Origin: Mesorhizobium xinjiangense
Lineage (GTDB): Bacteria > Pseudomonadota > Alphaproteobacteria > Rhizobiales > Rhizobiaceae
Assembly: GCF_009749525.1 (NCBI RefSeq)
Contig: NZ_WOAC01000015.1
Location: forward strand, 62,001-126,000
Direction: 5' to 3'
Length of the DNA stretch: 64,000 bases
How positions within the stretch are numbered: the stretch's first letter is position 1; each line of letters begins with the position of its first letter. The translations under genes were made by a program, and so were the position numbers. The notes under the pieces are model-generated. The model was not told the DNA's origin. It was given only the letters and a program-made list of their open reading frames with translations, and did no database searches. Below, in pieces: positions 412 through 14,033 of the stretch.

Positions 412-487
412 GCCGCTTTAGCTCAGTTGGTAGAGCACATCATTCGTAATGATGGGGTCGCGTGTTCGAGTCACGCAAGCGGCACCA
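412..487 (+). tRNA. tRNA-Thr (anticodon CGT)
   Basis: A full cloverleaf can be folded: acceptor GCCGCTT/AAGCGGC (412-418 with 477-483), D arm GCTC/GAGC, anticodon stem CATCA/TGATG with loop TTCGTAA (anticodon CGT at 445-447), T arm GCGTG/CACGC with TTCGAGT, and an encoded CCA end (485-487). The 3' half is duplicated at 13985-14033, so this gene was the integration site of the adjacent element and was regenerated intact by it. The T-rich run that probably served as its original 3' flank now lies after the right-hand repeat (14034-14040). Confidence 0.97.
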
Positions 488-488
488 A
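440..488 (+). repeat. attL (49-bp core direct repeat, left copy)
   Basis: This stretch is identical to 13985-14033. It begins in the 5' strand of the tRNA-Thr anticodon stem and runs through the anticodon, the T arm, the acceptor 3' strand, CCA and one further base. Integrases that target tRNA genes typically use this segment, so the tRNA is restored on integration. Confidence 0.95.
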
Positions 489-526
489 AAATCTCAATAA
501 AACCAACCATCTAATTCTATCTAGCT

Positions 527-572
527 TGGTGCCACGGACAATCGGATTTCTTGTGGTACCGGAATGGTACCG
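527..572. promoter_or_regulatory. Candidate left arm-type recombination sites (three TGGTRCC motifs)
   Basis: Just inside attL are TGGTGCCA (527), TGGTACCG (554) and TGGTACCG (565), with start-to-start spacings of 27 and 11. The other end of the element carries three matching motifs with spacings of 28 and 11. Repeated near-palindromes with the same spacing at both ends suggest arm-type binding sites for the integrase or an excisionase. That function is inferred. Confidence 0.5.
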
Positions 573-668
573 CGCCAACGCAAGGCTATGCTAGGTTCCG
601 CAAGGCAGTAGGTTGGATTCACGTTACAGACATCTGTAGAATAGAGCTTGGCCGGAGGGAGAGGGGTC

Positions 669-1253
669 ATGGTCGAGAGAAACGCCGTTCTGCGAATTCA
701 TGGTCATGGCGGTGAACCTGTCGATGACACAGTCGTGTTTCTGACGTCTTTGAACCAAGCCTATTCGGGAATTCTTTTGTACGAAATGGAGTTGGAGCGG
801 CTAGCAAGCCGAGCCCGCTACTGGCGGCGATATGAACCGTTCTTGCATAATCCGACTATTGACTTTGCGCCGATCTCATTTGCGTTGCCTGCAGGAGCGC
901 GCCTCTGCCTCAAGGGCGTCGTGCTGCAATCGCCCGGATTTTGGGATTTCCTCGGAAAGTTGAATCCGTTGGAGGTCATCAGAAATGCGATAAACGACGC
1001 CCACGAAAGGCGGAAGGATAGGGCGTACCGAGAATCTGCCGAAGAAAGACGGCTGACCTTGGAGAACAAATTATTGGAGAATCAAGCGATTAAGGAGCGC
1101 ATTGAAATACTCCAAAGTGTGGGCATTACTCCGGACGAACTGGCCCAGGTTCGGACATCTTTAATCCACGACAACGTCGATAGACTCCTGCAATTTCAGA
1201 ATAGCGGTATGATCGAGCATGCCGAATTGGATCCACCCAGGAAGAAGATTTGA
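669..1253 (+). CDS. Unknown protein with C-terminal coiled coil (194 aa)
   Basis: I do not recognise a named family. The ATG at 669 is preferred over a TTG at 648 because the purine-rich GGAGGGAGAGGGG lies directly before it. The N-terminal half is mixed alpha/beta. The middle carries the segment PGFWDFLGKLNPLEVIR followed by HERRKDRAYRE, and from about residue 115 to 165 the protein is charged and helical, probably a coiled coil. No signal peptide or membrane segment is seen. It lies at the left edge of the element, transcribed rightward away from attL and opposite to the phage-like genes, so it is more likely cargo than a structural gene. HicB follows 6 bases downstream. Confidence 0.6.
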   Translation: MVERNAVLRIHGHGGEPVDDTVVFLTSLNQAYSGILLYEMELERLASRARYWRRYEPFLHNPTIDFAPISFALPAGARLCLKGVVLQSPGFWDFLGKLNPLEVIRNAINDAHERRKDRAYRESAEERRLTLENKLLENQAIKERIEILQSVGITPDELAQVRTSLIHDNVDRLLQFQNSGMIEHAELDPPRKKI

Positions 1254-1259
1254 CCGGCA

Positions 1260-1535
1260 ATGCCGCTAGCCGCAGCACTGATCCACGAAGAAAACGGCGC
1301 CTCTGGTATCTCGTTTCCGGACTTCCCCGGTGCCGTCAGCGGCGGCGACTCCCCGGAAGATGCTATTCGCCGTGGCAGCGCCGCGTTGACCTTCCACGTC
1401 GCCGGGATGCTGGAAGACGGCGAAAAGCTGCCCTTCCTGCGCAGTCTCGCCGAACTCAACGGAGATGCAACCTTTCGCGAAGATTCCGAAGGCGCCGTTT
1501 TGGTCATGGTGCCGTTTGAGCTACCAACCCAATAG
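1260..1535 (+). CDS. HicB-family antitoxin-like protein, no HicA partner
   Basis: The 91 residues match the HicB fold: an N-terminal strand (ALIHEENGASGISFPDFPGAV), then SGGDSPEDAIRRGSAALTFH and a loop with LEDGEKLP. HicB proteins are the antitoxin part of HicAB type II systems and usually have a short partially degraded RNase H-like domain with a DNA-binding tail. The expected HicA toxin, a 60-80-residue double-stranded-RNA-binding-like protein normally directly upstream, is absent. The upstream neighbour is the unrelated 194-aa gene, 6 bases away. It could be an orphan regulator, or the upstream gene could be an unrelated toxin partner. The tail lacks an obvious HTH or ribbon-helix-helix DNA-binding domain. 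Confidence 0.75.
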   Translation: MPLAAALIHEENGASGISFPDFPGAVSGGDSPEDAIRRGSAALTFHVAGMLEDGEKLPFLRSLAELNGDATFREDSEGAVLVMVPFELPTQ

Positions 1536-1555
1536 CACCTATCCTGCCGGCGCGG

Positions 1556-1915
1556 CTATCTTGACCGTTCGCCTCGCGTCTTGGTTCGTATGGAACCCTC
1601 AATGAAATCTTCGATATCGCCAACTTTGTAGAGAACCCGTCCGCCTAGTTTGACGTAGGCCGGCCCCGCGCCTTCGGAACGCCAGCGCGCCAGTGTTGGG
1701 ATACTGATGTTCATAGCATCGGCCGCATCTGCAGGGGTCAATAGACCGGCCCTATTGCCTCGCCGAGGCACGCCAGCGGGTACGGCACTCACAGCCCCGC
1801 AAGCCCCGTCCTGCATTGCGTTGGCCCTGTTCTGGGCGTCCTGAATGGCTTCTGACGCCAAGGCGACGGCTCGTTTCGCCGCCGCGATGGCTTCCCGTAG
1901 CGCCTCGGCGTTCAC
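1556..1915 (-). CDS. Excisionase/AlpA-like helix-turn-helix protein (119 aa)
   Basis: The C-terminal 60 residues contain LLTPADAADAMNISIPTLARW..GPAYVKLGGRVLYKVGDIEDFI, the winged HTH of the MerR/excisionase (AlpA, HTH_17) class. Such proteins act as recombination directionality factors or regulators of integrase genes. The N-terminus is Ala-rich and helical. The frame stays open to an ATG at 1984, but I choose the GTG at 1915. It overlaps the stop of the upstream gene as GTGA, and GGAG sits 8 bases before it, which is the pattern of translational coupling. Its place as the last gene of the leftward block near attL fits a role in excision. An operon repressor role is equally possible. Confidence 0.72.
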   Translation of the reverse strand: MNAEALREAIAAAKRAVALASEAIQDAQNRANAMQDGACGAVSAVPAGVPRRGNRAGLLTPADAADAMNISIPTLARWRSEGAGPAYVKLGGRVLYKVGDIEDFIEGSIRTKTRGERSR

Positions 1916-2310
1916 CGTGGCGTCTCCGCCATGCGTCCCGCCAGCGACGCCACGAAATGAGCCCATCGTTCTCGATTCATCCAATTGGCATGAAGGCCGG
2001 CTTCAAGGAGATAGTCAGCCTTGGCACGGGCTTCCCTGAGCGACGTCACCGGCGCGCGGATCAGCGATTCCAGGGCAATGCCGTCCTGTTCAAGCAACAT
2101 GTCCCAATAGGGCAGGCAATTCGGATCGTACGCGTCATCCGTTGGATCCGCCTGACAGCAAATCCGGTCGATTTCGCGAATGACGTGGCGATGATGCCGG
2201 ATCAGTTCGGAAACAGTGCAGTGGAAGGGTCTCGGGTCGGCAGGGGCGACGGGGATATCAATGGTGGTCGACGCGAATTCGTTGTGCGTGGTAGTATGAG
2301 CGTTAGCCAT
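1912..2310 (-). CDS. Unknown phage-type protein (132 aa)
   Basis: This gene has no recognised family. It starts at an ATG at 2310 with a good Shine-Dalgarno sequence (AAAGGACC) and ends in a GTGA overlap with the downstream HTH gene, so the two are probably translated together. The protein is helical, with a His/Arg-rich segment (IRHHRHVIREIDRICC), Trp-containing segments and no membrane or signal sequence. It may be a small partner or regulator of the excisionase-like protein. The function cannot be assigned. Confidence 0.6.
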   Translation of the reverse strand: MANAHTTTHNEFASTTIDIPVAPADPRPFHCTVSELIRHHRHVIREIDRICCQADPTDDAYDPNCLPYWDMLLEQDGIALESLIRAPVTSLREARAKADYLLEAGLHANWMNRERWAHFVASLAGRMAETPR

Positions 2311-2339
2311 TTCGAAGGTCCTTTCTTCGGTTTGGTCAG

Positions 2340-2372
2340 GCCGGGTGTTGAGGTTGCCGCCTCAACCCCGGC
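2340..2372. other. Strong hairpin in the gap upstream of the 132-aa gene
   Basis: Arms 2340-2353 and 2360-2372 pair as 13 base pairs with a single bulged T at 2346 and a 6-base loop. It lies in the 229-base gap between two leftward genes (2540 and 2310). No T-run follows on the minus strand, so it is not a normal intrinsic terminator. An attenuator, processing site or mRNA-stability element is possible. Confidence 0.5.
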
Positions 2373-2539
2373 TCGCTCACCATTGATCAAAACGCCCGCA
2401 CGATCAACAGCATTCGAAGAAAATTCGAAAGATATCAATATGTTGGTTGCAATTTGCAAACGCGGCCCGTGTTCGGCCGATGCGATGTTTTCGAAATGAC
2501 AACGCGGCACCCGTGCATGTCCGTCGCGCAACGGGAATT

Positions 2540-2881
2540 CTAGCGCACGTCCAGCCAATCCAGCGAGCAGATGAGAATCGGTTCCCCGGTATGGGGATGA
2601 ACGAGGCCGGGAATTTCAGGGCGCACGCTTAGCCAGAGTACGCGCTTCAAGATCTTCGCGTCGGTCAACGCACGTTGGAGTTCTGGCACCGACATCGGGA
2701 TTGCGGCGTGGCGCACCCTGTCGTCTTCGTCATCGCCGGCGGTGTAGTCAATCAGGGATATGACGCGATCTCCGAATGCGCGGCCGTTGACGGATAAGGG
2801 CCGGCTCAATATGCGCGGTGCAATAATGACGGAATCGACGTCGCCACCGTCCGAGAAGATGAGAGTTGGAGTGCTGGACAT
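2540..2881 (-). CDS. Unknown protein downstream of the tape measure gene (113 aa)
   Basis: This gene starts 6 bases after the tape measure stop and is clearly cotranscribed with it. The protein is mostly beta with a short helix, and includes SVNGRAFGDRVISLIDYTAGDDEDD and a C-terminal PILICSLDWLDVR. It has no signal peptide or membrane segment. In contractile and siphophage tails, the genes after the tape measure usually encode tail-hub or distal-tail components, so a small tail accessory role is a reasonable guess, but no family signature supports it. It ends 229 bases before the next gene. Confidence 0.6.
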   Translation of the reverse strand: MSSTPTLIFSDGGDVDSVIIAPRILSRPLSVNGRAFGDRVISLIDYTAGDDEDDRVRHAAIPMSVPELQRALTDAKILKRVLWLSVRPEIPGLVHPHTGEPILICSLDWLDVR

Positions 2882-2887
2882 GGGCGA

Positions 2888-4891
2888 TCAATCGTTCAAC
2901 CGGCTCAATATCTGTTGCCGCTGCCGATCCACTTCATTCGCCAGCGTTCTTTTGACCACCGACGCAATCTCATTGGCATCGGACTCGCGCCCATTGATCG
3001 TGAAGTTCACGTTGAATGGGGCATTCACGGTTTGCGGTTGGTGAACCGTTATCGGTTCCGGAAATTCAGCAGATGCGGCGGTGACGTTGGCGGCCTCGAC
3101 CTTGTCGGTCTGGACTTTCTGCGGTGTGGCATCCGGGGCCGTGAACGCAGGCAGTGCCATGGGCGCTATCGGCGGCGCTGTCAGCACCGGGCGCGGCGCA
3201 ACATCGGCGGTCGGGGCCGCCGGGCCTTCCACGTTCGAAACGGCCGAAACATCAAAACCGATCCGCTTCTGCAGCGATTCCGGCAACCAGCCCACGAGCC
3301 CATTGATGGACTCTTTGAACCATCCCACCACGGCTTTCATTTTGGACTTGAGGCCATCCCACAAAGCGCCAATGATGGCAGCGCCCCAACCGTAGAACCG
3401 GGAAAACAGACCTTCCATGAACGCGGCGAACTGGCCGCCGATCTCGGCAAGCCATTCGTAGATCGCGGCGAGGCCGGAACCGATGCCCTCCGCGAATGAT
3501 GCGATGACACCGGCACCCGCGTCCAACAATGAGAACCCGGTGAAATACTTGACCACGGCATCCAAGCCGCGTGCGACATGGACAAGCGGGTTGAACTCAA
3601 GCCATAGCGCCGCCATGCCTTGGAGAAAGCCCTTGTCGAAGGCATCGGTTATCCGCGTCCAGAGATTTGCCCAATAGGCAACGAATTCATCCCATTTCTG
3701 TACAAGCACATAGGCGGCAGCACCGACGAGCGCGAGGCCGCCGAGTATCCAGCCGACCGGCGTGGATAGGATGACGACGCCGAGTTTGATGAAGGACGCC
3801 GAAAGCAGCGCCACGGCTGCGACGAGCGGCCCCGTGATCCACGCCGCCACGGCAACGAATGCCGCCTGCCCCGGCCCGCCAAGGAAGTCGATGACCGGCC
3901 GTATCCGATCAATGAAACCGGAAAATCCATCCGCTAACCGACTGATCTCCATTCGGATCGAGGAAGTCGGGTCCAATAGGGCGCGAAGGACATTCGACAA
4001 TCGCTTCGCCCATCCGGCGATAGTGGACCGGACCAACTTTGCATTGGCGTCAAACCATTCCGTGGCACGAACGACCATTTCGTCCATGACCGGCATAAGG
4101 TGGACGCCGATCATGTTGGCGATGCCTTCAAGCCGCTTTTGCAGGCGGGCGATGTTGTCGCCGAATACTTCGGAGAATTCCGACGCGTTCTGGCTCAGCA
4201 CATGCCCGGTGCGGCGCGCCTCTTCTCTCTGCCGGCGAATGCCATCGGCGCCCTGTTCGAACATGCGCGTCATGTCCTGCCCGGCGCGGCCGAACAGCAC
4301 CATGGAGATACGAGTACGCTCCATCGGGCTTTCGATGCTGGCGATGGCCTCAACCGTCTCGTTAAACAGTTGATCCATACTCTTCATATTGCCGCCGGCA
4401 TCACGAAGAGAGACGCCGAGCGCATCAAATTCGCGCGAATAGGTCTTGGTGCCGCGTGCCGCATCCGCCGCGTTGGCGCCGAACCGCTTCATTCCCTTTT
4501 CCAATGCCTCCGAAGAGACGCCGGACATTTCCGCCGCGTACCGGTATTCCTGCAGCGCCTCGGCGCCGATACCAAGTTGTCGGGCGGTCTTCGCGATTTC
4601 ATCGCCAAGGGCGGCGGTATGCTGTGCCAATTTGAATGCGCCGAACACGGCCCCGGCGCCGCCAATGCCGAGCGCACCAGTCAACATGCTAAGGCGACGC
4701 GTTGCATGGCCAAGTCCGTCGCCGAGAGCGCTTAGATTGCGGCCAAGGTTGCCGGCGGCACGGCCTATCCGGTCTAGGCCGAATGAACGGGAAAGCGATG
4801 CAATCCGCGCCTGTAACCGGCGTATCGGTCCGGTGATCCGGTCGACAAGGCTCAGTTCAACTGTTGCGGCAGCGGCAGTACGGGCAGTCAT
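2888..4891 (-). CDS. Phage tail tape measure protein (667 aa)
   Basis: Tape measure proteins set tail length and help DNA exit. The N-terminus (VELSLVDRITGPIRRLQARI, residues 11-30) has the family's typical opening, followed by long Ala-rich helices. Residues 175-215 carry the TP901-type core motif, ending LFGRAGQDMTRMF. Residues 340-395 form a long hydrophobic stretch (WITGPLVAAVALLSA..., VGWILGGLALVGAAAYVL), the usual membrane-active region. The C-terminal 100 residues are Pro/Ala-rich with a final helix. SD-like AAAGAGAAG precedes the ATG at 4891, inside the end of the preceding 94-aa gene. By the rule of thumb of 0.15 nm per residue, this length would specify a tail near 100 nm. It is the only recognisable virion gene on the element. 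Confidence 0.87.
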   Translation of the reverse strand: MTARTAAAATVELSLVDRITGPIRRLQARIASLSRSFGLDRIGRAAGNLGRNLSALGDGLGHATRRLSMLTGALGIGGAGAVFGAFKLAQHTAALGDEIAKTARQLGIGAEALQEYRYAAEMSGVSSEALEKGMKRFGANAADAARGTKTYSREFDALGVSLRDAGGNMKSMDQLFNETVEAIASIESPMERTRISMVLFGRAGQDMTRMFEQGADGIRRQREEARRTGHVLSQNASEFSEVFGDNIARLQKRLEGIANMIGVHLMPVMDEMVVRATEWFDANAKLVRSTIAGWAKRLSNVLRALLDPTSSIRMEISRLADGFSGFIDRIRPVIDFLGGPGQAAFVAVAAWITGPLVAAVALLSASFIKLGVVILSTPVGWILGGLALVGAAAYVLVQKWDEFVAYWANLWTRITDAFDKGFLQGMAALWLEFNPLVHVARGLDAVVKYFTGFSLLDAGAGVIASFAEGIGSGLAAIYEWLAEIGGQFAAFMEGLFSRFYGWGAAIIGALWDGLKSKMKAVVGWFKESINGLVGWLPESLQKRIGFDVSAVSNVEGPAAPTADVAPRPVLTAPPIAPMALPAFTAPDATPQKVQTDKVEAANVTAASAEFPEPITVHQPQTVNAPFNVNFTINGRESDANEIASVVKRTLANEVDRQRQQILSRLND

Positions 4892-5141
4892 GGCGCTTCT
4901 CTTTCCTTTCGGGAACGGCCGACTCTGATTTTTTGGGACGGAATGCCGTATCCATCAGCTGAGCCCATGGTCGGAAGCCGGCATGATGCAGAGCCTCCAT
5001 TGCTTCACCGACTTTGACGCGGCTGGCAGTGTCCAGCGGCAGGCAGTCGCCATACTCTTTCAGGAATTCGTCGCCGTGGACGCCGAACCGAACTGCGAAC
5101 TGTCGCGGCGTCGGGCTAACGGGACTGGAAGGCGGGAGCAT
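4857..5141 (-). CDS. Small unknown protein overlapping the tape measure start (94 aa)
   Basis: The 94-codon frame overlaps the first 35 bases of the tape measure gene in another register. That arrangement resembles the small genes, often tail assembly chaperones, that precede tape measure genes in many phages. The protein contains RQFAVRFGVHGDEFLKEYG and SRVKVGEAMEALHHAGF and ends in a basic, Cys-containing tail (HDCPYCRCRNS). No sequence match to chaperones is recognisable, and I saw no slippery frameshift site that would fuse it to another frame. It is probably real because of its position; its function is unknown. Confidence 0.5.
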   Translation of the reverse strand: MLPPSSPVSPTPRQFAVRFGVHGDEFLKEYGDCLPLDTASRVKVGEAMEALHHAGFRPWAQLMDTAFRPKKSESAVPERKEKRHDCPYCRCRNS

Positions 5142-5362: not shown

Positions 5363-5399
5363 AAGCCGCCGGTGGTTTCAGACGGCGGATTCGAATTCA

Positions 5400-5831
5400 C
5401 TATGCCCGTTTCAGGGCACGTTTCCATGCAGCGGCTCGGTCGATGCCGTCGCTGTGCGCATCTGCTGGAGTGGTCGTGCCAGAAGAAGCGTTTGACGGTT
5501 GCGAGCCACGGGCATCGGCAGAGGCCCGTTTCAGGGCACGTTTCCATGCAGCGGCTCGGTCGATGCCGTCGCTGTGCGCATCTGCTGGAGTGGTCGTGCC
5601 AGAAGAAGCGTTTGACGGTTGCGAGCCACGGGCATCGGCAGAGGCCCGTTTCAGGGCACGTTTCCAAGCAGCGGCTCGGTCGATGCCGTCGCTGTGCGCA
5701 TCTGTCTTCGATGTGGCTGACGGCGCTCCGGCCTGCGCTTCCAACGCACGTAATGCTCGATGGCGTGCAATCTGGGGCGGCGTGCCTTTGGCAACTTCTT
5801 CGGCAACCAGCCTACGGAATTCTTCTGACAT
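5400..5831 (-). CDS. Small unknown protein with 40-residue tandem repeats (143 aa)
   Basis: I start the gene at the ATG at 5831 (MSEEFRRLVAEEVAKG...), because GGAGAAAG lies 4 bases upstream; the frame itself stays open to 5885. Residues 1-42 are helical. From about residue 43 to the stop the protein is two and a half copies of a 40-residue repeat with DAHSDGIDRAAAWKRALKRA as its first half and a Ser/Thr/Pro/Gly-rich linker as its second half. The two full DNA copies are identical, so the expansion is recent, and a 120-bp unit keeps the frame. The basic amphipathic helix in each unit could bind nucleic acid or a partner. No family is recognised. Confidence 0.6.
   Translation of the reverse strand: MSEEFRRLVAEEVAKGTPPQIARHRALRALEAQAGAPSATSKTDAHSDGIDRAAAWKRALKRASADARGSQPSNASSGTTTPADAHSDGIDRAAAWKRALKRASADARGSQPSNASSGTTTPADAHSDGIDRAAAWKRALKRA
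5404..5704. repeat. 120-bp tandem repeat, 2.5 copies
   Basis: Units are at 5404-5523, 5524-5643 (identical to the first) and a partial copy at 5644-5704 with one mismatch. The unit length is a multiple of three, so copy-number change adds or removes 40 residues from the overlapping minus-strand gene without a frameshift. There are no unique spacers, so it is not a CRISPR array. Confidence 0.95.
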
Positions 5832-5845
5832 CGTGCTTTCTCCTA

Positions 5846-6088
5846 TTACTTCCGCCGCAACGCCCGCCGCCACATATCGGCACATGCTGAACGCTGGCGC
5901 TCGGTTTCACGATCTTCAAACATGCCGATCAACGCGGTCGGCACACGGTTCTTGTCCATGTATGGCCGATGGGCATTGGCTTGGAGCGGCGGATACTTCC
6001 GGCGCTCTGCCTGCGCAGGCTGCGGCTTGGTGCTCTGCTGAGCCTTTCGGGCCAAAATGGCAGCTGCCGCCAGAAAATTGAGGTTCAT
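5846..6088 (-). CDS. Small unknown basic protein (80 aa)
   Basis: The ATG at 6088 overlaps the stop of the upstream gene by one base (TGATG), and GGAGG precedes it by 7 bases, so translational coupling is likely. A TTG one codon earlier is less likely. The protein has a short hydrophobic N-terminal helix (LNFLAAAAILAR) and a basic C-terminus (MWRRALRRK). The N-terminus is too short and weak to call a signal peptide. It belongs to the same leftward chain as its neighbours. No family is recognised. Confidence 0.55.
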   Translation of the reverse strand: MNLNFLAAAAILARKAQQSTKPQPAQAERRKYPPLQANAHRPYMDKNRVPTALIGMFEDRETERQRSACADMWRRALRRK

Positions 6089-6642
6089 CAAAGTTCCTCC
6101 GCCAACATGAATTCCATGGGCGCATCAGCGCGTCTGTTCACACTGAACCCCGCTTCTTCCGCGCCTCGGATCATGATTTCTTCATTTCGTTCGGCATCGC
6201 GAATCGCGGCGTCGACGCGGGCCAGTGCATCGCGCCGTTCCTCGGCGGCAAAGGCACGATCTTTGGATTGAATTTGAGACTGAGCGATTTCGGTAAGGGC
6301 TTCGCTGAATTCTTCGCGGAAGCCCAAGAGGCACATCGCACCAAGCGGGGAATGCTTGAATGCCTCTGCGATGCCGGGGTCGGTGCTGAGGCCGGCGCCG
6401 GATGGAGTCACAAGGCACGCGGGACGAAAGTAGCGCTTCGCATCGCGCTCGGCCTCATCGAGCAAGGCACCGATACGGGTCTCGGATTCGGCGGGATCAA
6501 TTGGGGCTCCTTCAATCGACTGGCGCTCTTCGAGCAATGCAAGCCGCTTGGCACGCTCACCCTCGATTGCGTCCATGATCTCCCGCGCGGCGCGGCGCTG
6601 CTTGTCGAAGATGCCCGAGAGCCGGTCACTGATCTTCGCCAT
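6088..6642 (-). CDS. Unknown helical protein (184 aa)
   Basis: The start ATG at 6642 overlaps the previous stop as TGATG, and the 3' end makes the same overlap with the next gene, so this is the middle member of a tightly coupled trio. The first 55 residues (ISDRLSGIFDKQRRAAREIMDAIEGERAKRLALLEERQ) and the segment before the C-terminus are long charged helices, probably coiled coils. The middle contains a short hydrophobic stretch around LGAMCLLGF. No catalytic motif or membrane segment is seen. In phage genomes, coiled-coil proteins of this size include scaffolds and assembly factors, but there is no sequence evidence for either. Confidence 0.6.
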   Translation of the reverse strand: MAKISDRLSGIFDKQRRAAREIMDAIEGERAKRLALLEERQSIEGAPIDPAESETRIGALLDEAERDAKRYFRPACLVTPSGAGLSTDPGIAEAFKHSPLGAMCLLGFREEFSEALTEIAQSQIQSKDRAFAAEERRDALARVDAAIRDAERNEEIMIRGAEEAGFSVNRRADAPMEFMLAEEL

Positions 6643-7069: not shown

Positions 7070-7567
7070 TCAGGAATTTTTTGCCAACTTGCGCTCTTCA
7101 TCGAAGATCTTCCGAATTTTCCCATGACTCGGAAATTTGCCGTCATTGACCGTAAGGATTCGGTGGATGCTGCGTTGCGGCTCCACGGCTGGGCTACGTT
7201 CAGCATCCACATCGCGACGCCACTGCCCGGACATGTAGCGCCCCGCCGCTTCCAAGATTTTATCGGCGGCACCATTTGAAGAGCGGATGTCTTTGTATAC
7301 GGTTCGCCGAAGATCACAGAGCAGCAAGCTGGTTTCCTTTCTTACGGTTACCGCTTTGGATGGTCCGGACGTGCCGACTAATGGCCGACCTTTCTCGTTG
7401 ACCATCTTTATCAGGGCGCGGCGTACTTCCTCATCCGGGGTGCGCGACAATGCTTCAAGGAGGATCAATTCGGCTTGCCGCCGATAGAACTCAGGATCGG
7501 CGGGCCGCGACGCCGCCCATTCGCTGAGAGGAACAATGACGGTTCGGGCAGTGCGGCGTTCACTCAT
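7070..7567 (-). CDS. Unknown protein, first gene after the putative origin (165 aa)
   Basis: The frame opens at 7624, but I prefer the ATG at 7567 (MSERRTARTVIVPLSEW). The extra N-terminus would run through repeated GGGGAC words that belong to the adjoining origin-like region. The protein is mixed and basic, with RRQAELILLEALSRTPDEEVRRALIKMV, a segment VRKETSLLLCDLRRTVYKDI, and a Lys-rich end (SHGKIRKIFDEERKLAKNS) that could bind DNA. It heads the leftward chain of small genes, so a regulatory or packaging-related role is possible. No family is recognised. Confidence 0.55.
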   Translation of the reverse strand: MSERRTARTVIVPLSEWAASRPADPEFYRRQAELILLEALSRTPDEEVRRALIKMVNEKGRPLVGTSGPSKAVTVRKETSLLLCDLRRTVYKDIRSSNGAADKILEAAGRYMSGQWRRDVDAERSPAVEPQRSIHRILTVNDGKFPSHGKIRKIFDEERKLAKNS

Positions 7568-7585
7568 GGCCGGCGATCCCGACAT

Positions 7586-7881
7586 GGGGACAACGCCAAA
7601 TTCTGTCCCCGGCTTTGTCCCCACTTATGTCCCCATATTATCCTATTGATATAATTATATAATTTAGAATTTGAATTGAATGGGGACGGTGGGGACAGAG
7701 AAAGCATAGGTACATATGCGACTGCTGCCCAATCGTACGTGTCAGGTGTGTATTTACACATAGGGCTATCTATTCCGGGGAAAGTGCGTCCCCATGTCCC
7801 CATTTGCCGATTTCGTATGTGATTCCAATGACTTGCCATGGGGACGAACTTGGGGTCGAATGGGGGACGAAACACGGGGAC
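7586..7881. other. Putative replication origin: 11 GGGGAC iterons around an AT-rich segment
   Basis: Eleven exact GGGGAC/GTCCCC words start at 7586, 7605, 7617, 7629, 7682, 7691, 7788, 7796, 7840, 7863 and 7876, plus a variant GGGGTC at 7852. Less than one is expected by chance in 300 bp. Three are spaced exactly 12 bp apart. Between 7635 and 7680 lies a nearly pure A/T stretch suited to be the unwinding element. The cluster fills the gap next to the P-loop replication ATPase gene. Iterons, an AT-rich segment and an adjacent helicase/primase gene are the architecture of satellite and plasmid origins. Origin function is inferred. Confidence 0.68.
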
Positions 7882-7891
7882 GATGGCCGAT

Positions 7892-9706
7892 TCAGTCACT
7901 TTCGCCATGGCCGGCGGCCTCCAAATCGATGCGCAGGCAACGAACCTTGTCTCTGGAATCGAACCGCACCGTCTTTTCAAATGCGGTAGCGGCCGGATGC
8001 TGCTTTAGCGTTGCCACCTGAAAAGGCATTCCATGGAAGATTGATCTCAGCGATGGATGGGTATTTGAGACGAGGATACCTGCCCCGCCGCCCGGCTCAT
8101 CGGGAACATCAACGCGGATTCCGTAACGCAAAAGTGCCTTGTGATAGGATTCGGCAAAGTCAGGGTCGCGTGCGACTACGGCATCGATCATTTCGCCAAT
8201 TGTGCGCCGGATTCCGCCATCAAGGAGCACAGAGCTTTGCATGAGGTGGGTATACGCGGCGTCGTGGTCCGCTGCGGTCTGCCCGCGCGATATGGCCTCA
8301 CCGAGCCATTTCCAGCTTTGCAACCGGGCCTCTGCAGTCTCCGCGTCGATGCGCTTACTGGTATAGAGGCTTAGCCACCCTGCCAAGGGCGCGCCGAGCG
8401 TGTCACCTAGTCTGCGGTTGCCTGTCCTCTTTGCGATGGCTGTGGCGAAGGTCTCGGCATTCGCATTGATCACATCAACGAGTCCAAGCGTACGCCAGAA
8501 TAGTCGATCCCCGAAATTGTTCGCTAGGAGATCATCAATTTCGCGCTGGAGCCGTGCGAAGCGCTCCGCACGGTCGCGCCGAATTTCGGCAGAGGCATTT
8601 GGATCAGTGCCGCGAAGCTCCAATGTGATGATACGGCTCTCGTCAGCCGGTAGCGTCATGCTCTTGTCGATGCTGGCAAACAGGAAGGTGGAGCGAACAC
8701 GGTAGGTCGCGCTGGCGCCGCCGGCACTTCCCTTCACAATAGGAGCGCCATTTGCCGAAAACGCCTGCCGGGCAAGACCTATTACCTTGGCGACGCGCCG
8801 CCGGTCATCTTCGGTCTTGGCCTCAAATTCATCGAACAAAACCGGCAACAAGTCGCCCTTGAGCACCTGTCGGACGCCGGCCTCGGTTGTGTCTGATTGC
8901 ACGTTGAGAGCGGTATTGCCGAGCAGCCTCCCGGCTATCTCATCCATTACGTAAGATTTTCCGGATCCTCGTTCGCCCGTGATCCACAGATGCGGCCGTG
9001 TTTCGAGTGCGCCGCAGATCGGTGCAATTGTCAGCCAACCGGCGAGAAGTCGCCCCATGTCCGGTGTGGCCCAACTGAGCGATTCAAGGATATGACAAAG
9101 TTGTCTAGCTTCGTCATCCTTGAGGGGTTCCGCCTTCGTGATATTGAGCCGGGTTCGCTTCTGGAAGATCCATTTGGAGCCGGGAAGGCACAAGCTGGCC
9201 TCCCTTCCATCAACGACTAGCCGGTCGCCGAGATGAGCAACGACGCTGCCATCATCTTCGAGAAGGACGCCACGCCCAACTTTGCGCGAAGGGTCAAAGA
9301 CGCCCTGATCTTCGCACTTCCGAAGCATCGCATTCGCGGCTGCATCCCAATCGCACCCCCTGCGACCCGGAAAGTTTACTTCCCAATAGGAAAGCGGCGC
9401 CAAATTCATCAGCGTCTGTTTTGAGTGAGCCGCCCCCCGTATGTCGACAATCTGCTCTTGCCGTTCCGACCAATAGAAAAACGTTCCCTCATCGAAGCCA
9501 AGGGCGCGGATGCCGGTTGGAAGGGCAGCTTCGAATTCTTCCCCGGCCGGCGCAGCATCGGCCGGCGGCGGGTTGATCGCGGCATCGATGGTGGGGCGAA
9601 CACGGTCAAGGTCGAATTTCAGTGCGGCGTTTTCGCGCGCTTTGGTTCGGCCGGGCTTCGCAAAATCGAGATGCGGATCGTCGTCGGGGTCAAACGGGGA
9701 GTCCAC
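7892..9706 (-). CDS. P-loop replication ATPase (helicase/primase-like) of the element (604 aa)
   Basis: The C-terminal two thirds hold a AAA+/superfamily-3-like ATPase core: Walker A GERGSGKS at about residues 248-255, Walker B LLPVLFDEFEA some 45 residues later, and a sensor-type segment (RVRSTFLFASID) followed by ADESRIITLELRG. The N-terminal 200 residues may be a primase or DNA-binding part, but I cannot name a fold. I choose the GTG at 9706: it overlaps the upstream stop as TAGTG, with GGGGAG 7 bases before it. The frame itself stays open to 9829. Coupling with the zinc-motif gene and the neighbouring iteron cluster support a role as the element's replication initiator/helicase, analogous to the alpha protein of P4. 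A bacterial housekeeping ATPase is unlikely here. Confidence 0.7.
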   Translation of the reverse strand: MDSPFDPDDDPHLDFAKPGRTKARENAALKFDLDRVRPTIDAAINPPPADAAPAGEEFEAALPTGIRALGFDEGTFFYWSERQEQIVDIRGAAHSKQTLMNLAPLSYWEVNFPGRRGCDWDAAANAMLRKCEDQGVFDPSRKVGRGVLLEDDGSVVAHLGDRLVVDGREASLCLPGSKWIFQKRTRLNITKAEPLKDDEARQLCHILESLSWATPDMGRLLAGWLTIAPICGALETRPHLWITGERGSGKSYVMDEIAGRLLGNTALNVQSDTTEAGVRQVLKGDLLPVLFDEFEAKTEDDRRRVAKVIGLARQAFSANGAPIVKGSAGGASATYRVRSTFLFASIDKSMTLPADESRIITLELRGTDPNASAEIRRDRAERFARLQREIDDLLANNFGDRLFWRTLGLVDVINANAETFATAIAKRTGNRRLGDTLGAPLAGWLSLYTSKRIDAETAEARLQSWKWLGEAISRGQTAADHDAAYTHLMQSSVLLDGGIRRTIGEMIDAVVARDPDFAESYHKALLRYGIRVDVPDEPGGGAGILVSNTHPSLRSIFHGMPFQVATLKQHPAATAFEKTVRFDSRDKVRCLRIDLEAAGHGESD

Positions 9707-10434
9707 TACGCGACTCCCCTTCCGGCGTCCTTCCAAGCTGCCATCAATGCACGCGCCAGCCTCAACCGCATTCGCCCTGGGCCGCGCGACCTGATGTAGT
9801 GGGACAAGGCGGCTTTCTCGGCGGAGCACTTATCCATACCGCAGTCGAACTGAAGGATGGCGGCGCGCTCATCAAGCACGCCTGATCTAACAATGGCCCG
9901 AAAAGCCACCGCCGAATAATCCCGGTGCCACCGAATGGTTCGGCTCCGGGTCAATCGCCGTGCCTCACGGAACTGTAGTGCAAGGGCGGTGTAGTTGAGC
10001 AAGTCCGCCGTTGGCGCTTCGACCGCGAAAGCGATCTCATCCGGCAGTACGTCAACGACGACCCCAACACGGTAGTATAGCGGCTTCAGCTTGCCCGAAT
10101 GGAACGGCGGCAGGCTATCCGCACAGTGAGGGTACTTCAGCGGATTTGTGGCCAGCGAATGGCGGTGGAACCGTCGGCACAACGGGCATGTTCCGCCGAT
10201 GTTGACGTTTCCATCTTCGATGCTGACGGGCCATACCCGAAACGTGGCAACCTTCGGGTCAATCGTCGCGTGCCACGACTCCGTGATGATCCTCATGTGC
10301 TCGCCGGTTAGGTGAATTCCTGCCGCCGCGAGCCGTTCCATTCCACCGGGCGGCGACAGAGTTTGCAAATCGTCAACGCTATGGTCGCGCTGAATGAATT
10401 GCCCGCTTGGGGCAATTTTGGTACGCATTGTCAT
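9706..10434 (-). CDS. Zinc-motif protein coupled to the replication ATPase (242 aa)
   Basis: Residues around 80-105 contain CPLCRRFHRHS...YPHC, a probable zinc-binding knuckle. In many primases and P4-like replication proteins a zinc ribbon precedes the primase/helicase module. The C-terminal part is helical and basic (SRTIRWHRDY, RSRGPGRMRLRLARAL). The stop codon is shared with the GTG of the ATPase gene (TAGTG), so the two products are probably made together and may form one replication complex. The start is taken at the ATG at 10434; a second ATG two codons downstream is equally possible, since no strong ribosome-binding site is seen. Confidence 0.6.
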   Translation of the reverse strand: MTMRTKIAPSGQFIQRDHSVDDLQTLSPPGGMERLAAAGIHLTGEHMRIITESWHATIDPKVATFRVWPVSIEDGNVNIGGTCPLCRRFHRHSLATNPLKYPHCADSLPPFHSGKLKPLYYRVGVVVDVLPDEIAFAVEAPTADLLNYTALALQFREARRLTRSRTIRWHRDYSAVAFRAIVRSGVLDERAAILQFDCGMDKCSAEKAALSHYIRSRGPGRMRLRLARALMAAWKDAGRGVA

Positions 10435-10499
10435 TGATCTGAGCCTGAATCTGAGAGTGCCTCGCTACAAGCCTGCCGTCCCACCGGCGGGCTTTTGCG

Positions 10500-10796
10500 T
10501 CAGGCGTCAACGCCATTAGTGCGAAGGAACACCCGTAGGCTGCCCGCGCTGTAGACCGCCCGTCGCCCAAGCTTTTGGAACTGCGGGCCATCGCTGCGTG
10601 CGCTTCGCCACCGAACGAGAGTCAGCTCTGCAACCTGATAGCCATGCGCGGCCATGAATCGTACGGCTTCAGGTGTTTGCATTAGAATAGAGTCCGGTAT
10701 CGCCCGTGCTCTTTCTGCCTCTGCTGCCAATTCCTCATACGGAATCGATACAGCGCGGCGACGTTCTGAAATGGCATCATGATTTTCTACAAGCAT
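10500..10796 (-). CDS. Second AlpA/excisionase-like HTH protein (98 aa)
   Basis: The C-terminal half (GYQVAELTLVRWRSARSDGPQFQKLGRRAVYSAGSLRVFLR) is a winged HTH of the AlpA/MerR-excisionase type, with the usual helix-turn-helix, a GP.F.KLGRR wing and a final strand-helix. The N-terminus is a charged helix. It is the first gene of the leftward replication block and lies divergent to the GHKL ATPase gene, a place typical of the master regulator of a satellite (AlpA in P4). It could activate the integrase or control the divergent promoters. Homology to the other HTH protein (1556-1915) is limited to the domain class. Confidence 0.7.
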   Translation of the reverse strand: MLVENHDAISERRRAVSIPYEELAAEAERARAIPDSILMQTPEAVRFMAAHGYQVAELTLVRWRSARSDGPQFQKLGRRAVYSAGSLRVFLRTNGVDA

Positions 10797-11155
10797 ATTT
10801 CGACTCCATCATTGATGGACCTACATATGCATTACCGTCATTTAAGTGCGCAATTCCACAATCCTGCGATTTTCCTTCGAAATGACGTAGATATTCAAAA
10901 TGAATATTGAAGCAACTCGGTCCACCCGAAATCTGTTCGGCGAAGGTCGACGTCTCTGGGAGGAAGCGGGAGGCCGACATAGGGACGAGGACCTGCTTGT
11001 CCTGGAAGCGGACCTTCAACCCCCTTGGGAACAATCTTCATTCTCATACATCGGGTAATGACAATAAGCGTATGGTCTGCCAGCTTTCACTATGTGGTGG
11101 CTTGAAATGCCATGACGGTGTTCATCTTAAGAAGAGTCGGGGGGCATACATCGAA
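10797..11155. promoter_or_regulatory. Divergent control region with a 17-bp palindrome
   Basis: The 359-base gap separates the leftward HTH gene and the rightward GHKL ATPase gene. It is AT-rich in its left third and contains ATATTCA-AAA-TGAATAT (10891-10907), a perfect palindrome suitable as an operator. I see no convincing extra gene in it, although the reading frame of the ATPase gene stays open upstream to 10907. Promoters for both flanking genes should lie here. Confidence 0.45.
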
Positions 11156-12391
11156 ATGTCAATCTTCAGTGTGGGGAATCGCGTGTCGGTACGCGGCGAG
11201 CTCGACGCCGCCGACTGTTCGCGATTGTTGGCGGCAATGCACAATGAAGTGCATGTCAAGAAGTATCAGGATATCGAACTCGATTTCTCGGACTGCACGA
11301 AAGCCTACCCAGCAGAGATGGTTGCTGTCTGCGTGAAGTGCCAACAATTGTGGAAAGAGGGAGTAGACATACACCTCTCTCTTCCAACTGAAAGGAAAAT
11401 GTCCAAACTGTTCTTAAATACCAATTGGGCTCATCTGATTGATATAAGGCAATTCGAGCCCAGTAGGTACAGAGGCTACACGCACGCTCCCGCATTGAGA
11501 TTTTCGAGTGGGAAGGAGCAATATGAGGCCATCAACAAGATTCTAGAAATATTGCTTGCCGCCCTTCTCAAACTTAAAAGAGAAGATTTAAGGATAATAG
11601 AATGGGCCTTAAATGAGATAACAGACAATGTGATAAATCATTCGCAGTCACCAATTGGCGGATTGGTGCAGGTGACCAATCATCGGCAACAGTCGCAAAT
11701 ACAGTTCGTCGTCGCTGACGCGGGAATCGGCATACCCGGATCATTACGGCCGGCACGACCGGATATTCGAAATGATCAGGAGGCCTTAGATGCTGCAATT
11801 AGAGAGGGTGTTACAAGAGACAATGCCGTAGGACAAGGGAATGGTCTCTATGGTACGTGGCAGATTTCCAAGAAAAGCTTTGGACGATTTCGGTTACTTT
11901 CCGGTTATGCGTCATTAGAATCATCTGAAAGAGATGGACTCCGCATTCAAAAGCGCGACATTCCCCTTAGTGGCACTCTCGTGTCCTGCCGGATTGGGTA
12001 TGCGGCTGATTTGGCATTGGAGGATGCGCTTATCTTTTCGGGCAAAAGGCACGTCCCTACCGATTATATTGAAACTCATTTTGAAGCCAGAGAGGATGGT
12101 TCAATTGTATTTGATCTTTCCCAGGAATCTGAAGGATTTGGCTCAAGAGCAGCGGGTGATCCCGTACGAAGAAAACTTCACAATGTCATTAGAATGTCTG
12201 ATGCAGATCGAGTAATTATAGATCTTGATAAGGTTTTGCTTGTGTCGAGCAGCTATGCAGATGAAGTGTTTGGCAAGCTGTTCATTGAGCTGGGGCCGCT
12301 AGAATTTAGCAGGCGCATCGACATTCAGAATGTCGACCCACTCGTGCAGGCGTTGATCGACAAGGCTATCCTTCAAAGGATGCGGCAATAG
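11156..12391 (+). CDS. GHKL-type ATPase with STAS-like domains; candidate defence or signalling cargo (411 aa)
   Basis: A Bergerat-fold (HATPase) domain lies in the middle: N-box NEITDNVINH (residues 153-162, E154/N158/N161), G1 box DAGIGIP (188-194) and G2 box GQGNGLYG (226-233). There is no histidine phosphoacceptor domain. The N-terminal 100 residues resemble a STAS-like alpha/beta module, and the C-terminal 70 residues (VIIDLDKVLLVSSSYADEVFGK) match the STAS-like DUF4325 type often paired with such ATPases. The start ATG at 11156 follows GTCGGGGGG; the upstream open frame looks non-coding. The gene is clearly more AT-rich than its neighbours and sits between the replication block and the integrase, the usual cargo slot of satellites. 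Phage defence is an inference from position. Confidence 0.72.
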   Translation: MSIFSVGNRVSVRGELDAADCSRLLAAMHNEVHVKKYQDIELDFSDCTKAYPAEMVAVCVKCQQLWKEGVDIHLSLPTERKMSKLFLNTNWAHLIDIRQFEPSRYRGYTHAPALRFSSGKEQYEAINKILEILLAALLKLKREDLRIIEWALNEITDNVINHSQSPIGGLVQVTNHRQQSQIQFVVADAGIGIPGSLRPARPDIRNDQEALDAAIREGVTRDNAVGQGNGLYGTWQISKKSFGRFRLLSGYASLESSERDGLRIQKRDIPLSGTLVSCRIGYAADLALEDALIFSGKRHVPTDYIETHFEAREDGSIVFDLSQESEGFGSRAAGDPVRRKLHNVIRMSDADRVIIDLDKVLLVSSSYADEVFGKLFIELGPLEFSRRIDIQNVDPLVQALIDKAILQRMRQ

Positions 12392-12467
12392 CCATACCAA
12401 TTGAAAAGGCATCCCTGCCTTGCGCTCAAGCGGAGAATGTCGGCCGGCCTTGGGCTCAATCGAGCCC

Positions 12468-12500
12468 TTCATTGCGTCCGTTGGCTACGGCCGCAATGAA
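12468..12500. terminator. Hairpin between the convergent ATPase and integrase genes
   Basis: TTCATTGCG (12468-12476) pairs with CGCAATGAA (12492-12500), with an inner CCGT/ACGG pair and a 5-base loop, giving a 13-bp stem with one mismatch. A second short hairpin (GGGCTC/GAGCCC, 12452-12467) lies just upstream. Their position between genes ending at 12391 (+) and 12548 (-) suits a bidirectional terminator, although the T-runs are weak. Confidence 0.5.
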
Positions 12501-12547
12501 GGTGAGCCTGGCCATAGCCAGCGGGTAGCAATAGTCAGATTTGACCA

Positions 12548-13792
12548 CTAGGGGTGTCGAGCAAGTGCTAGTGGAACCACTTTGCCGACCTCTTTGCCAT
12601 CGAGCGCACCTGCAATCCGGGCGGACACTTTGTCGGCGGCGACAAGCAGCGCGGCATCAGGCGTATGCGAATATCGCTGGGTGACACCGGCTGGTCGATG
12701 GCCCAGCAATCCGGCTATGACCAATTCCGAAAATCCTAGCTCAGCAGCGACGCTGGCGAATGTGTGTCGGAACACGTGAGCCGATATCCCATGAATGTCG
12801 GCCCGCGCCGCAAGCCGGGCTAGCACACGCGGCAACCCCACGAAGTGTCCGTCGCCACGTTGTGCAGGAAATGCCCATTGCCTGTCCGATGGCGCATCCT
12901 TGAGCGCCTGTAGAGCGCTCGCACCCATTGGACGCGTCTGTCTACCAGTTTTTGTGTCCCCGAAGCGAATGCACCTAGCCGGGAAGTCGATCCACTCAAT
13001 GGGCAATGCCAACGCTTCCATCCGGCGGCATCCACTCAAAAGAAGGAACCTAACTGCTGCCAGCCCAACTGGTGGTTCCAATTCAGCAGAAGCGTTTCGC
13101 ATGGCCTTTCCAAGGCGCGTGATTTCATCGAGTGAGAGGTGTCGTTCTCGCGCTGAAATTGAGATCTTCTGCACATTTGCGACCGGATTCCGGTCAATGA
13201 TTTCCAACGTCTTGCGAGCAAACTCGAACGCTCCTGAGAGGGTCGCAGTCACACGCGCCGCCGCACCTTCACCACCGAGCGTATGACCTCCACGCCCTTT
13301 GCGTCGCTTCTTTGCTGTTTGGCCGGTTCGGATAGCGGTTTGAAGGTCGGTGACATCTTTCGTTGTGATCGACGTCACCAACCGCTTGCCTATGAGCGGT
13401 TTGATGTGAACCTCGGCGCGTCCCTGATCACCCGTCCATGTCGACGGCTTTATATCTCGCTTCCGATGCGCCTGATATGCTTCGAAAAGCTCAGCAACGG
13501 TCATCCCTTTGCGCGCCTCAGATTTTGCAGCGGCCGGGTCCGCGCCGCCGGCAATCTCTCCGAGATATTTCTTGACTAGTGTACGCGCTTCTTCCGGCGT
13601 CAACGTGCCGACTCGGGCCAGAACCATTTTGCGCTGGCGACCGTCTTTTGTTCGGTACTTCAACAGAAATGACGCGACACCGGAGGGCATCATGCGGACG
13701 CCAAACCCTCGCAACTCGCCATCCCACAGGAAGGCCGGCTTGCCGTTCTCTGGTCGCAACGATTTGATAGAGTCCTTGGTAATCTTAGCCAT
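12548..13792 (-). CDS. int: Tyrosine recombinase integrase of the element (414 aa)
   Basis: The architecture is that of P4-type integrases: an N-terminal arm-binding domain (DUF4102-like, WDGELRGFGVRMMPSG...KYRTKDGRQRKMVLARVG), a SAM-like core-binding domain (about 95-195) and a catalytic domain. The catalytic set is visible: R256 (SGCRRMEAL), K281 (GDTKTG), H339 and R342 (HVFRHTFAS), H365 (LLGH) and Y374 (TQRYSHT). The ATG at 13792 is chosen because GGAGGGGGG lies 5 bases upstream; the frame opens at 13819. It lies 192 bases from attR and is transcribed away from it. Integration and excision at tRNA-Thr is its expected job, and all key residues are intact. Confidence 0.95.
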   Translation of the reverse strand: MAKITKDSIKSLRPENGKPAFLWDGELRGFGVRMMPSGVASFLLKYRTKDGRQRKMVLARVGTLTPEEARTLVKKYLGEIAGGADPAAAKSEARKGMTVAELFEAYQAHRKRDIKPSTWTGDQGRAEVHIKPLIGKRLVTSITTKDVTDLQTAIRTGQTAKKRRKGRGGHTLGGEGAAARVTATLSGAFEFARKTLEIIDRNPVANVQKISISARERHLSLDEITRLGKAMRNASAELEPPVGLAAVRFLLLSGCRRMEALALPIEWIDFPARCIRFGDTKTGRQTRPMGASALQALKDAPSDRQWAFPAQRGDGHFVGLPRVLARLAARADIHGISAHVFRHTFASVAAELGFSELVIAGLLGHRPAGVTQRYSHTPDAALLVAADKVSARIAGALDGKEVGKVVPLALARHP

Positions 13793-13810
13793 GGGCACCC
13801 CCCTCCAAAT

Positions 13811-13857
13811 TGGTACCACAACTGAAGGACGCTTACGCTGGTACCATTATGGCACCA
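13811..13857. promoter_or_regulatory. Candidate right arm-type recombination sites (three TGGTACCA-like motifs)
   Basis: TGGTACCA at 13811 and 13839 and TGGCACCA at 13850 have start-to-start spacings of 28 and 11, nearly the same as the trio inside attL (27 and 11). They lie just upstream of the integrase start, so binding could also regulate int transcription. Confidence 0.5.
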
Positions 13858-13984
13858 CAATAGCGCAAACCGTGGCGCAGTCAATCAATGCCGAAGCAAG
13901 CGGAATCCATTCACAACATATTGTTTTTCATAATAAATCAATGTGAACCAATTTTACGCATAGTTCCGCAATGATCTTCATGCC

Positions 13985-14033
13985 TCATTCGTAATGATGG
14001 GGTCGCGTGTTCGAGTCACGCAAGCGGCACCAA
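13985..14033 (+). repeat. attR (49-bp core direct repeat, right copy)
   Basis: Exact copy of 440-488, the tRNA-Thr 3' half. It is followed by a run of eight Ts starting at 14034, probably the 3' flank of the original tRNA gene. It lacks the 5' half and is not a functional tRNA. Confidence 0.95.

What the first reader, a model, noticed from the sequence alone, without database searches (positions are those of the whole stretch)
440..14033. A complete tRNA-Thr-integrated satellite-like element without capsid or packaging genes
The exact 49-bp att duplication, an intact integrase with all catalytic residues, two AlpA/excisionase-like regulators, an origin-like region, replication proteins and cargo form a coherent mobile unit of 13.6 kb. 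It lacks recognisable capsid, terminase, portal, lysis and conjugation genes. This is the layout of a phage satellite, but its gene set is not one I recognise from P4, PICI or PLE families. The intact, coupled reading frames suggest that it is not a decaying prophage.
Basis: partly seen in the sequence, partly recalled or inferred. Interest (0 to 1): 0.85.

Follow-up and report, generated by a model that had tools for sequence, protein, structure and literature searches.

The report
Phage satellite with own tape measure
A 13.6-kb mobile element in a tRNA gene looks like a parasite of bacteriophages that builds no virus shell of its own but carries the ruler protein that sets phage tail length, and it belongs to a group of similar elements spread through related bacteria.

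Summary
An exact 49-bp repeat of the tRNA-Thr 3' half (440-488, 13985-14033) bounds an element with integrase, two AlpA-like proteins, primase-helicase, an iteron origin (7586-7882) and no recognised terminase, portal or capsid gene. The three other genomes of the genus that are held have the same left flank, one att copy there and no element at that place. A profile of the neighbouring 'hallmark' protein 6088-6642 matched 18 of 397 genomes of the order. Of 21 loci examined, nine are units of 11-15 kb between exact tRNA repeats and 11 carry a tape measure gene downstream of the hallmark on the same strand. Some also carry a small terminase subunit or a head protease. I read this as a new family of phage satellites that take a helper's heads and tails and substitute their own ruler proteins, as shown experimentally for Vibrio PLEs (PMC12987554). 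Helper dependence, helper identity and tail substitution are inferred, not shown.

The parts
412..487 (+). tRNA-Thr(CGT), integration site
   Evidence: ARAGORN
440..488 (+). att copy inside the tRNA gene (49 bp)
   Evidence: exact direct repeat
648..1253 (+). accessory gene, unknown (201 aa)
   Evidence: ORF; no Pfam/PHROG/PADLOC hit
1260..1535 (+). HicB-like protein; 60% identical homologue beside the AlpA gene in L091
   Evidence: PF15919 E 5.2e-13
1556..1984 (-). AlpA/excisionase-like HTH regulator 2
   Evidence: PF12728 E 4.4e-10; 49% to L037 over 59 residues
1912..2310 (-). small gene (132 aa); gene in the same slot of L037 is similar only in a gappy pairwise alignment
2540..2881 (-). small gene (113 aa) directly downstream of the tape measure gene; gene in the same slot of L037 similar only in a gappy pairwise alignment
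2888..4891 (-). tail tape measure protein, 667 aa
   Evidence: PHROG_2276 E 2.8e-57, 41 PHROG families; phage match with the largest cover lies in the tape measure slot of a contractile, Mu-like-tailed phage
4857..5141 (-). 94-aa gene just upstream of the tape measure gene (slot where phages keep a tail assembly chaperone; no sequence support)
5400..5885 (-). 161-aa protein with 40-aa repeats (120-bp DNA repeat) ending in WKRAL, a C-terminal motif shared with head protease-scaffold proteins of relatives
5846..6091 (-). 81-aa protein ending in WRRALRRK, same motif
6088..6642 (-). hallmark protein (184 aa), all-helical, marks the family
   Evidence: profile search; AlphaFold2 pLDDT 88.9; no phage match
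6642..7055 (-). small gene (137 aa), counterpart in L037
   Evidence: pairwise alignment
7070..7624 (-). small gene (184 aa); BLAST relative in L088, weaker counterpart in L037
7586..7882 (.). replication origin (inferred): 11 GGGGAC[A/G] iterons in both orientations around an AT-rich stretch
7892..9829 (-). primase-helicase (helicase half), 645 aa
   Evidence: PHROG_35358 E 3.9e-96; 37% to L037
9706..10434 (-). C-x2-C...H-x-H protein, 242 aa, upstream of the helicase gene as in L037 (25% identity); L090 and L091 carry homologues of the L037 protein in that slot
10500..10796 (-). AlpA-like regulator 1
10907..12391 (+). cargo: STAS / HATPase / DUF4325 protein (start uncertain)
   Evidence: PF14213 E 1.2e-11, PF13581; PHROG_3364 E 2.9e-31 (unknown function); PADLOC DrmA-model match over residues 201-491
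12548..13819 (-). tyrosine integrase
   Evidence: PF00589 E 5e-15, PF13356
13985..14033 (+). second att copy (49 bp)

Best explanation
The element is a phage satellite of a so far undescribed family in Hyphomicrobiales. When a helper phage infects or is induced, the AlpA-like proteins and the integrase excise it from tRNA-Thr; the primase-helicase replicates it from the GGGGAC iteron origin; and it is packaged and carried in the helper's heads and tails. It supplies only a few proteins that decide how the helper's parts are put together: its own tape measure protein, most like those of contractile Mu-like tails, replaces the helper's and sets the length and DNA-ejection behaviour of a chimeric tail, and short scaffold-like proteins, perhaps with the all-helical hallmark protein, bias head assembly. 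Shown by sequence: integration, intact genes, repeats of an origin type, tape measure gene, a family of such elements, purifying selection on the tape measure gene in relatives. Inferred: helper dependence, chimeric tail, head remodelling, the helper's identity.
For: Bounded element, occupied tRNA site. Tape measure gene; phage relatives that match it over most of its length sit in contractile, Mu-like tails. Syntenic element in Methylopila sp. Yamaguchi (L037, 14.9 kb, tRNA-Arg, 54-bp att). Hallmark profile: 18 of 397 genomes of the order, 22 places (at most 8 candidates per genome were scored, so a lower bound); 21 of the 22 examined. Nine of 21 have exact tRNA repeats of 23-55 bp 11.2-14.9 kb apart, three more have 15-20 bp repeats. 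Tape measure in 11 of 21, each downstream of the hallmark on its strand (ten by individual PHROG scan; L105 by 94% identity to L096; order), and in one more element, L157, of another order. dN/dS of satellite tape measure genes 0.31 and 0.41 (Methylopila-genus elements), 0.12-0.15 (three copies in G238). BLAST of nine phage or prophage stretches against the called proteins of all 21 loci: matches only to tape measure, protease, one portal, TerS, primase, helicase and integrase, plus a chaperone-like gene in L102. PLEs: satellite tape measure enters virions, PLE11 tails 10 nm shorter, tmp deletion cuts transduction by 96% (PLE1), 99% (PLE4) and 99.9% (PLE11) (PMC12987554, section 8 read).
Against: No transfer, excision or helper data. 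Eight of the 19 loci with a credible hallmark lack a detected tape measure gene (two further loci, L101 and L103, are probably false hallmark matches). One element carries a portal (L091) and one a large-terminase-like gene (L099), and L092 has a weak neck-protein match (PHROG_5 E 0.004), so the family does not follow a strict no-head-genes rule. The window element has no recognised small terminase. The hallmark of L096 and L092 gives weak PHROG rows to tail proteins (tape measure E 8e-4, chaperone E 0.004), probably coiled-coil similarity, so a tail role of the hallmark is as open as a head role. By E-value the window's tape measure also matches Butyrivibrio and Komagataeibacter phages over 34-49% of its length (1e-26 to 3e-26), so the contractile origin is likely rather than certain. 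Satellite tape measures of the Methylopila genus are shorter than some phage relatives (623-636 against 728-826 aa) and longer than others (550-608): shortening is no general rule. No resident phage in the window's genome has a close tape measure: the prophage on contig 12 matches over 187 residues at 31%, and no lambda-type large terminase is found.
Confidence: 0.68

Rival explanations
1. Satellite, but the tape measure protein acts as a decoy that poisons the helper's tail assembly rather than as part of the satellite's own virion.
For: Satellite genes that block phage tail assembly are known (Rta of PLE11, PMC12987554; Tai systems in PICIs and P4-like satellites, PMC11364771 passages). A lone tape measure gene without tube or baseplate could titrate chaperones.
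Against: Long, diverse proteins, under purifying selection in the pairs tested; L102 carries a chaperone-like gene beside it (PF10109 E 6.5e-4, 20.1 bits against a cut-off of 25), which suits assembly. PLE precedent is incorporation.
Confidence: 0.14
2. Remnant of a larger prophage that lost its structural genes, leaving a tape measure gene by chance.
For: Tape measure, primase and protease pieces all have phage relatives.
Against: Exact att repeats, intact genes, same order and size in other genomes and other tRNA genes; dN/dS below 0.42 in relatives; the hallmark has no tblastn match in 50,697 phage records. The same narrow choice of genes would have to survive repeatedly.
Confidence: 0.08
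3. An integrative mobilisable element or defence island that moves by conjugation or general transduction and does not use a specific helper phage.
For: Integrase, own replication and defence-like cargo are also found in mobilisable islands; cargo of relatives matches restriction-modification and candidate defence models.
Against: No relaxase or transfer family in the 18 element ORFs scanned; a tape measure, head protease or TerS gene in at least 14 of the 21 loci (the 11 with tape measure, and L088, L093, L106).
Confidence: 0.1

Closest known systems
PLE satellites of Vibrio cholerae (PLE1, PLE4, PLE11)
   Same: Integrated satellites that encode their own tape measure protein; PLE11 incorporates it into chimeric contractile tails (PMC12987554, section 8)
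   Different: PLEs also carry a tail chaperone, and PLE11 a hub protein; about 18 kb (PMC10803314 passage). Sequences were not compared here, so unrelatedness is assumed from host and gene lists, not tested
cf-PICIs (capsid-forming PICIs)
   Same: Mean size 14 kb (PMC10803314 passage); some carry putative tmp genes (legend of Extended Data Fig. 10, PMC12987554)
   Different: They form capsids from their own genes (by their name); the window element has no recognised capsid, portal or terminase gene
PICMI (minimal satellites of Vibrionaceae)
   Same: int, alpA and primase as the core (PMC10803314 passages)
   Different: PICMIs sit at fis, have six genes in the prototype and no capsid remodelling genes; this one sits in tRNA-Thr with about 17 genes
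P4-like satellites
   Same: Integrase, AlpA-like protein, replication protein, cargo
   Different: Core of alpha, ash, Sid, Delta and Psu (list from PMC12424806 passage): no family of these names in the Pfam/PHROG scans
Contractile, Mu-like-tailed phages (Chromohalobacter phage YPCBV-1, Bordetella phage PY223, Rhizobium phage RR1-B)
   Same: Relatives of the family's tape measure proteins and, for PY223, of the primase-helicase
   Different: Phages with heads, sheaths and baseplates

Membership tests
phage satellite (general) | Site-specific integration between repeats, integrase, regulator and replication genes, 7-20 kb | tested here: met
   wording from the start of the abstract of PMC13376191 in the listing
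phage satellite (general) | Lacks genes for viral structural proteins (same abstract) | tested here: inconclusive
   no head or tail gene but the tape measure gene; taken literally not met, but PLEs, accepted as satellites, carry one too
phage satellite (general) | Transfer depends on a helper phage | not testable with these tools
   needs an infection experiment
P4-like satellite | Core genes alpha, ash, Sid, Delta, Psu besides AlpA and integrase | tested here: not met
   no family of these names in Pfam and PHROG scans of 18 element ORFs; remote homologues cannot be excluded
PICMI | Integration at fis | tested here: not met
   integrated in tRNA-Thr
cf-PICI | Own capsid genes | tested here: not met
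PLE | Own tape measure gene | tested here: met
PLE | Homology of backbone genes to PLE | not tested
   no PLE sequence was compared
PICI | Homology of backbone genes to PICIs | not tested
   no PICI sequence was compared
satellite that builds chimeric tails | Satellite tape measure protein present in particles | not testable with these tools
   needs purified particles
family described here (hallmark family) | Hallmark protein with downstream morphogenesis gene, integrase, AlpA-like gene and replication module between tRNA repeats | tested here: met
   window and L037

The most novel reading that the evidence does not exclude
A widespread alphaproteobacterial satellite family that lives by replacing the measuring proteins of its helpers at up to three points, packaging choice (small terminase), head size (protease-scaffold or scaffold tail, perhaps with the helical hallmark protein) and tail length and ejection (tape measure), and that swaps these cassettes to follow changing helpers while the hallmark and its position stay. 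In favour: satellite and phage tape measure proteins are interleaved in the tree, with at least two changes of state forced by well supported branches, yet the gene keeps one slot; and the window's tape measure is closer to phage proteins than to that of its otherwise nearest relative L037.
Probability: 0.42. Interest if true: 0.82.

Novelty: new variant of a known kind. Interest (0 to 1): 0.7.

Why it matters
According to PMC12987554 (March 2026, section 8) no satellite other than PLEs had been reported to carry a tape measure gene; the same paper points to putative ones in PLE-like elements and cf-PICIs. A further family, in another class of bacteria, in which the gene recurs in one slot with different phage-like forms, would make tail reprogramming a general satellite strategy. 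The set of elements, some with and some without the gene and five in one genome (G238), makes the open question of what a satellite gains from its own tail ruler directly testable.
Full report
What is there. The window holds a sharply bounded element. A tRNA-Thr(CGT) gene lies at 412-487 and its 3' part is repeated exactly, 49 of 49 bases, at 13985-14033. Beside the second copy is a full-length tyrosine integrase (12548-13819). In the three other genomes of the genus that are held, the left flank of the window is conserved up to the tRNA gene, one copy of the att core lies there, and no element sequence follows. So the element entered this lineage at this tRNA gene.

Gene content. From integrase to tRNA the minus strand reads: AlpA-like protein 1, a C-x2-C...H-x-H protein, a primase-helicase, an iteron region, three small genes ending in the 184-aa protein that I call the hallmark, two short proteins, a 94-aa protein, a 667-aa protein, two small genes and AlpA-like protein 2. 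Plus-strand cargo lies at both ends: a STAS/HATPase/DUF4325 protein next to the integrase, a HicB-like and an unknown gene next to the tRNA. In the iteron region 11 of the 20 GGGGAC[A/G] sites of 64 kb fall within 300 bp, on both strands, around an AT-rich stretch; elsewhere no 340 bp has more than two. Near the replication genes of L037, L090, L091 and L096 other 7-mers occur 5 to 7 times (no shuffled control). That this is the origin is inferred.

The missed gene. The 667-aa protein (2888-4891) is a tail tape measure protein: PHROG_2276, E 2.8e-57, residues 6-641, with 41 PHROG families matched. Among 135 phage records the one with the largest cover, Chromohalobacter phage YPCBV-1 (27% identity, 84% of the query), has it as a hypothetical protein between tail assembly and DNA circularisation genes of a contractile Mu-like tail; Butyrivibrio and Komagataeibacter phages match shorter stretches with slightly better E-values. 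In the window's own genome a single-sequence search finds one other, weak match (29%, E 7.5e-26), in a prophage on contig 12 whose gene names I read by eye (HK97-like order, integrase to lysozyme); a four-sequence tape measure profile finds only the element's own gene there. So the element has a tail ruler but no tail.

Relatives. A primase search in 297 genomes of the order led to L037 in Methylopila sp. Yamaguchi (same 94,176-base contig), which also shows that the order is that of Methylopila (Hyphomicrobiales, name recalled). L037 has the same order of genes, AlpA, Cys/His protein, primase-helicase, small genes, hallmark, tape measure, small genes, AlpA, between 54-bp repeats of a tRNA-Arg gene 14.9 kb apart, and adds a small terminase subunit (PHROG_57 E 1.5e-22). 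A two-sequence hallmark profile then matched 18 of 397 genomes of the order, 22 places. I examined 21 of the 22 (the place in G183 was not fetched in full). Two (L101, L103) look like chance matches; 17 hallmarks form one BLAST cluster and L088 and L095 are accepted from the profile. Nine loci have exact tRNA repeats of 23-55 bp that are 11.2-14.9 kb apart, in eight kinds of tRNA gene by anticodon (window Thr, L037 Arg, L092 Met, L094 Ser, L096 Val-GAC, L097 and L105 Val-CAC, L099 Ala, L104 Asn); three more (L091, L098, L106) have 15-20 bp copies of a tRNA-Ser end. For the other nine no repeat was found. An integrase of one BLAST cluster is present in 19 of 21 loci, 18 of them among the 19 with a credible hallmark. 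One genome, G238, holds five elements (L096, L100, L104, L105, L106).

Virion genes in the family. A tape measure gene was found in 11 of 21 loci: window, L096, L091, L092, L094, L095, L102, L037, L090, L100 by individual PHROG scan, L105 by 94% identity to L096. In each it lies downstream of the hallmark on the same strand. It was not detected in L088 (where insertion-sequence-like genes follow, by my reading of the ORFs), L089, L093, L097, L098, L099, L104 and L106; the limits of these absences are given under Tried and rejected. A class-wide search with the hallmark alignment gave 4 of 385 genomes; of the three not the window's own, L157, in another order, again has hallmark and tape measure side by side (PHROG_8462 E 5e-20) between 70-bp repeats of 93% identity, L158 is a 3.4-kb contig, and L159, in the same order, shows no tape measure by BLAST. 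Other morphogenesis genes occur in part: a small terminase subunit in L037, L088, L090 and four of the five G238 elements (L096, L100, L105, L106); an S49-type head maturation protease in L088, L090, L091, L095, L102, in L095 with a C-terminal stretch that matches a head scaffolding protein (PHROG_8399 E 8e-4); a ClpP-type protease in L093; a portal in L091 and a large-terminase-like gene in L099; a neck-protein match at E 0.004 in L092; a chaperone-like gene in L102. In L037 only the C-terminal end of the protease-scaffold remains (211 aa), and in the window two short proteins end in the same W[RK][RKA]A[LM] motif, one of them with it inside 40-aa repeats (the motif was composed after seeing these proteins). 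BLAST of nine phage or prophage stretches against all called proteins of the 21 loci gave tape measure, protease, portal (L091), one TerS, primase, helicase and integrase matches and none to sheath, tube, baseplate, major capsid or large terminase.

Selection and origin. The tape measure genes of the three elements in the genus of Methylopila have dN/dS 0.31 (L037/L091) and 0.41 (L037/L090), those of three G238 copies 0.12-0.15; they are kept as working proteins. In a tree of 11 satellite and 14 phage proteins the satellite label needs 4 changes and well supported branches force at least 2, gains and losses not being told apart. The window's protein is closer to phage proteins (best E 5e-51) than to L037's (E 4e-7), although its primase-helicase and hallmark match L037 best among the elements at hand. 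That is what cassette swapping to match a helper would leave. Several branches are long and the tree should not be pressed further.

How it probably works. AlpA-like proteins and integrase excise it, the primase-helicase copies it, and helper heads and tails carry it. The tape measure protein is most simply read as a replacement for the helper's: Vibrio PLEs do this, with PLE11 tails 10 nm shorter and a 96-99.9% loss of transduction when tmp is deleted in PLE1, PLE4 and PLE11 (PMC12987554 section 8). The hallmark, an elongated helical protein by AlphaFold2, may act in head or tail assembly; its fold gave no significant match. A decoy role of the tape measure protein remains the main rival.

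Known or new. It works like a satellite with chimeric tails but fails the tested defining features of P4-like, PICMI and cf-PICI elements, and was not compared by sequence with PLE or PICI. The same 2026 paper mentions putative tmp genes in PLE-like elements and cf-PICIs (legend only), so the idea is known; I found no description of this family, its range in Hyphomicrobiales or its other morphogenesis genes in my literature searches.

Noticed in passing
L096, L100, L104, L105, L106 (G238): Five related satellites in one genome, three with and two without a detected tape measure gene; L096, L105 and L104 sit in tRNA-Val, tRNA-Val and tRNA-Asn with exact repeats. A natural test set.
   Followed up: partly
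G000:C12:313867-354000 (L062, L058, L061): A prophage next to tRNA-Thr(TGT), read by eye as HK97-like with integrase, terminase, portal, protease, capsid, tail genes and lysozyme; the only resident helper candidate I saw.
   Followed up: partly
window 5404-5763: Three tandem 120-bp repeats (two identical, one 68%) inside the gene 5400-5885; the repeat unit ends in the WKRAL motif.
   Followed up: partly
L090:15614-17712, L091:676-2245, L037:18350-19555: Cargo at the tRNA end of relatives matches type II restriction-modification, the candidate defence pair PDC-M53 and an AbiZ-like model.
   Followed up: no
L099:7100-8644: Large-terminase-like protein (PHROG_2 E 3e-25) in an 11.7-kb element without a detected tape measure gene.
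   Followed up: no
G000:C1:245556-246382 (L059): Broken primase relative with an internal stop in the window's own genome, perhaps the remnant of another mobile element.
   Followed up: no
L110 (12.9-kb IMG/VR contig): Short metagenomic contig with a tube-like gene and a tape measure protein 26% identical to the window's over 570 columns.
   Followed up: partly
L041-L057: Other stretches with a primase-helicase relative share several gene clusters; L041 and L043 look like phages, the rest were not annotated.
   Followed up: no
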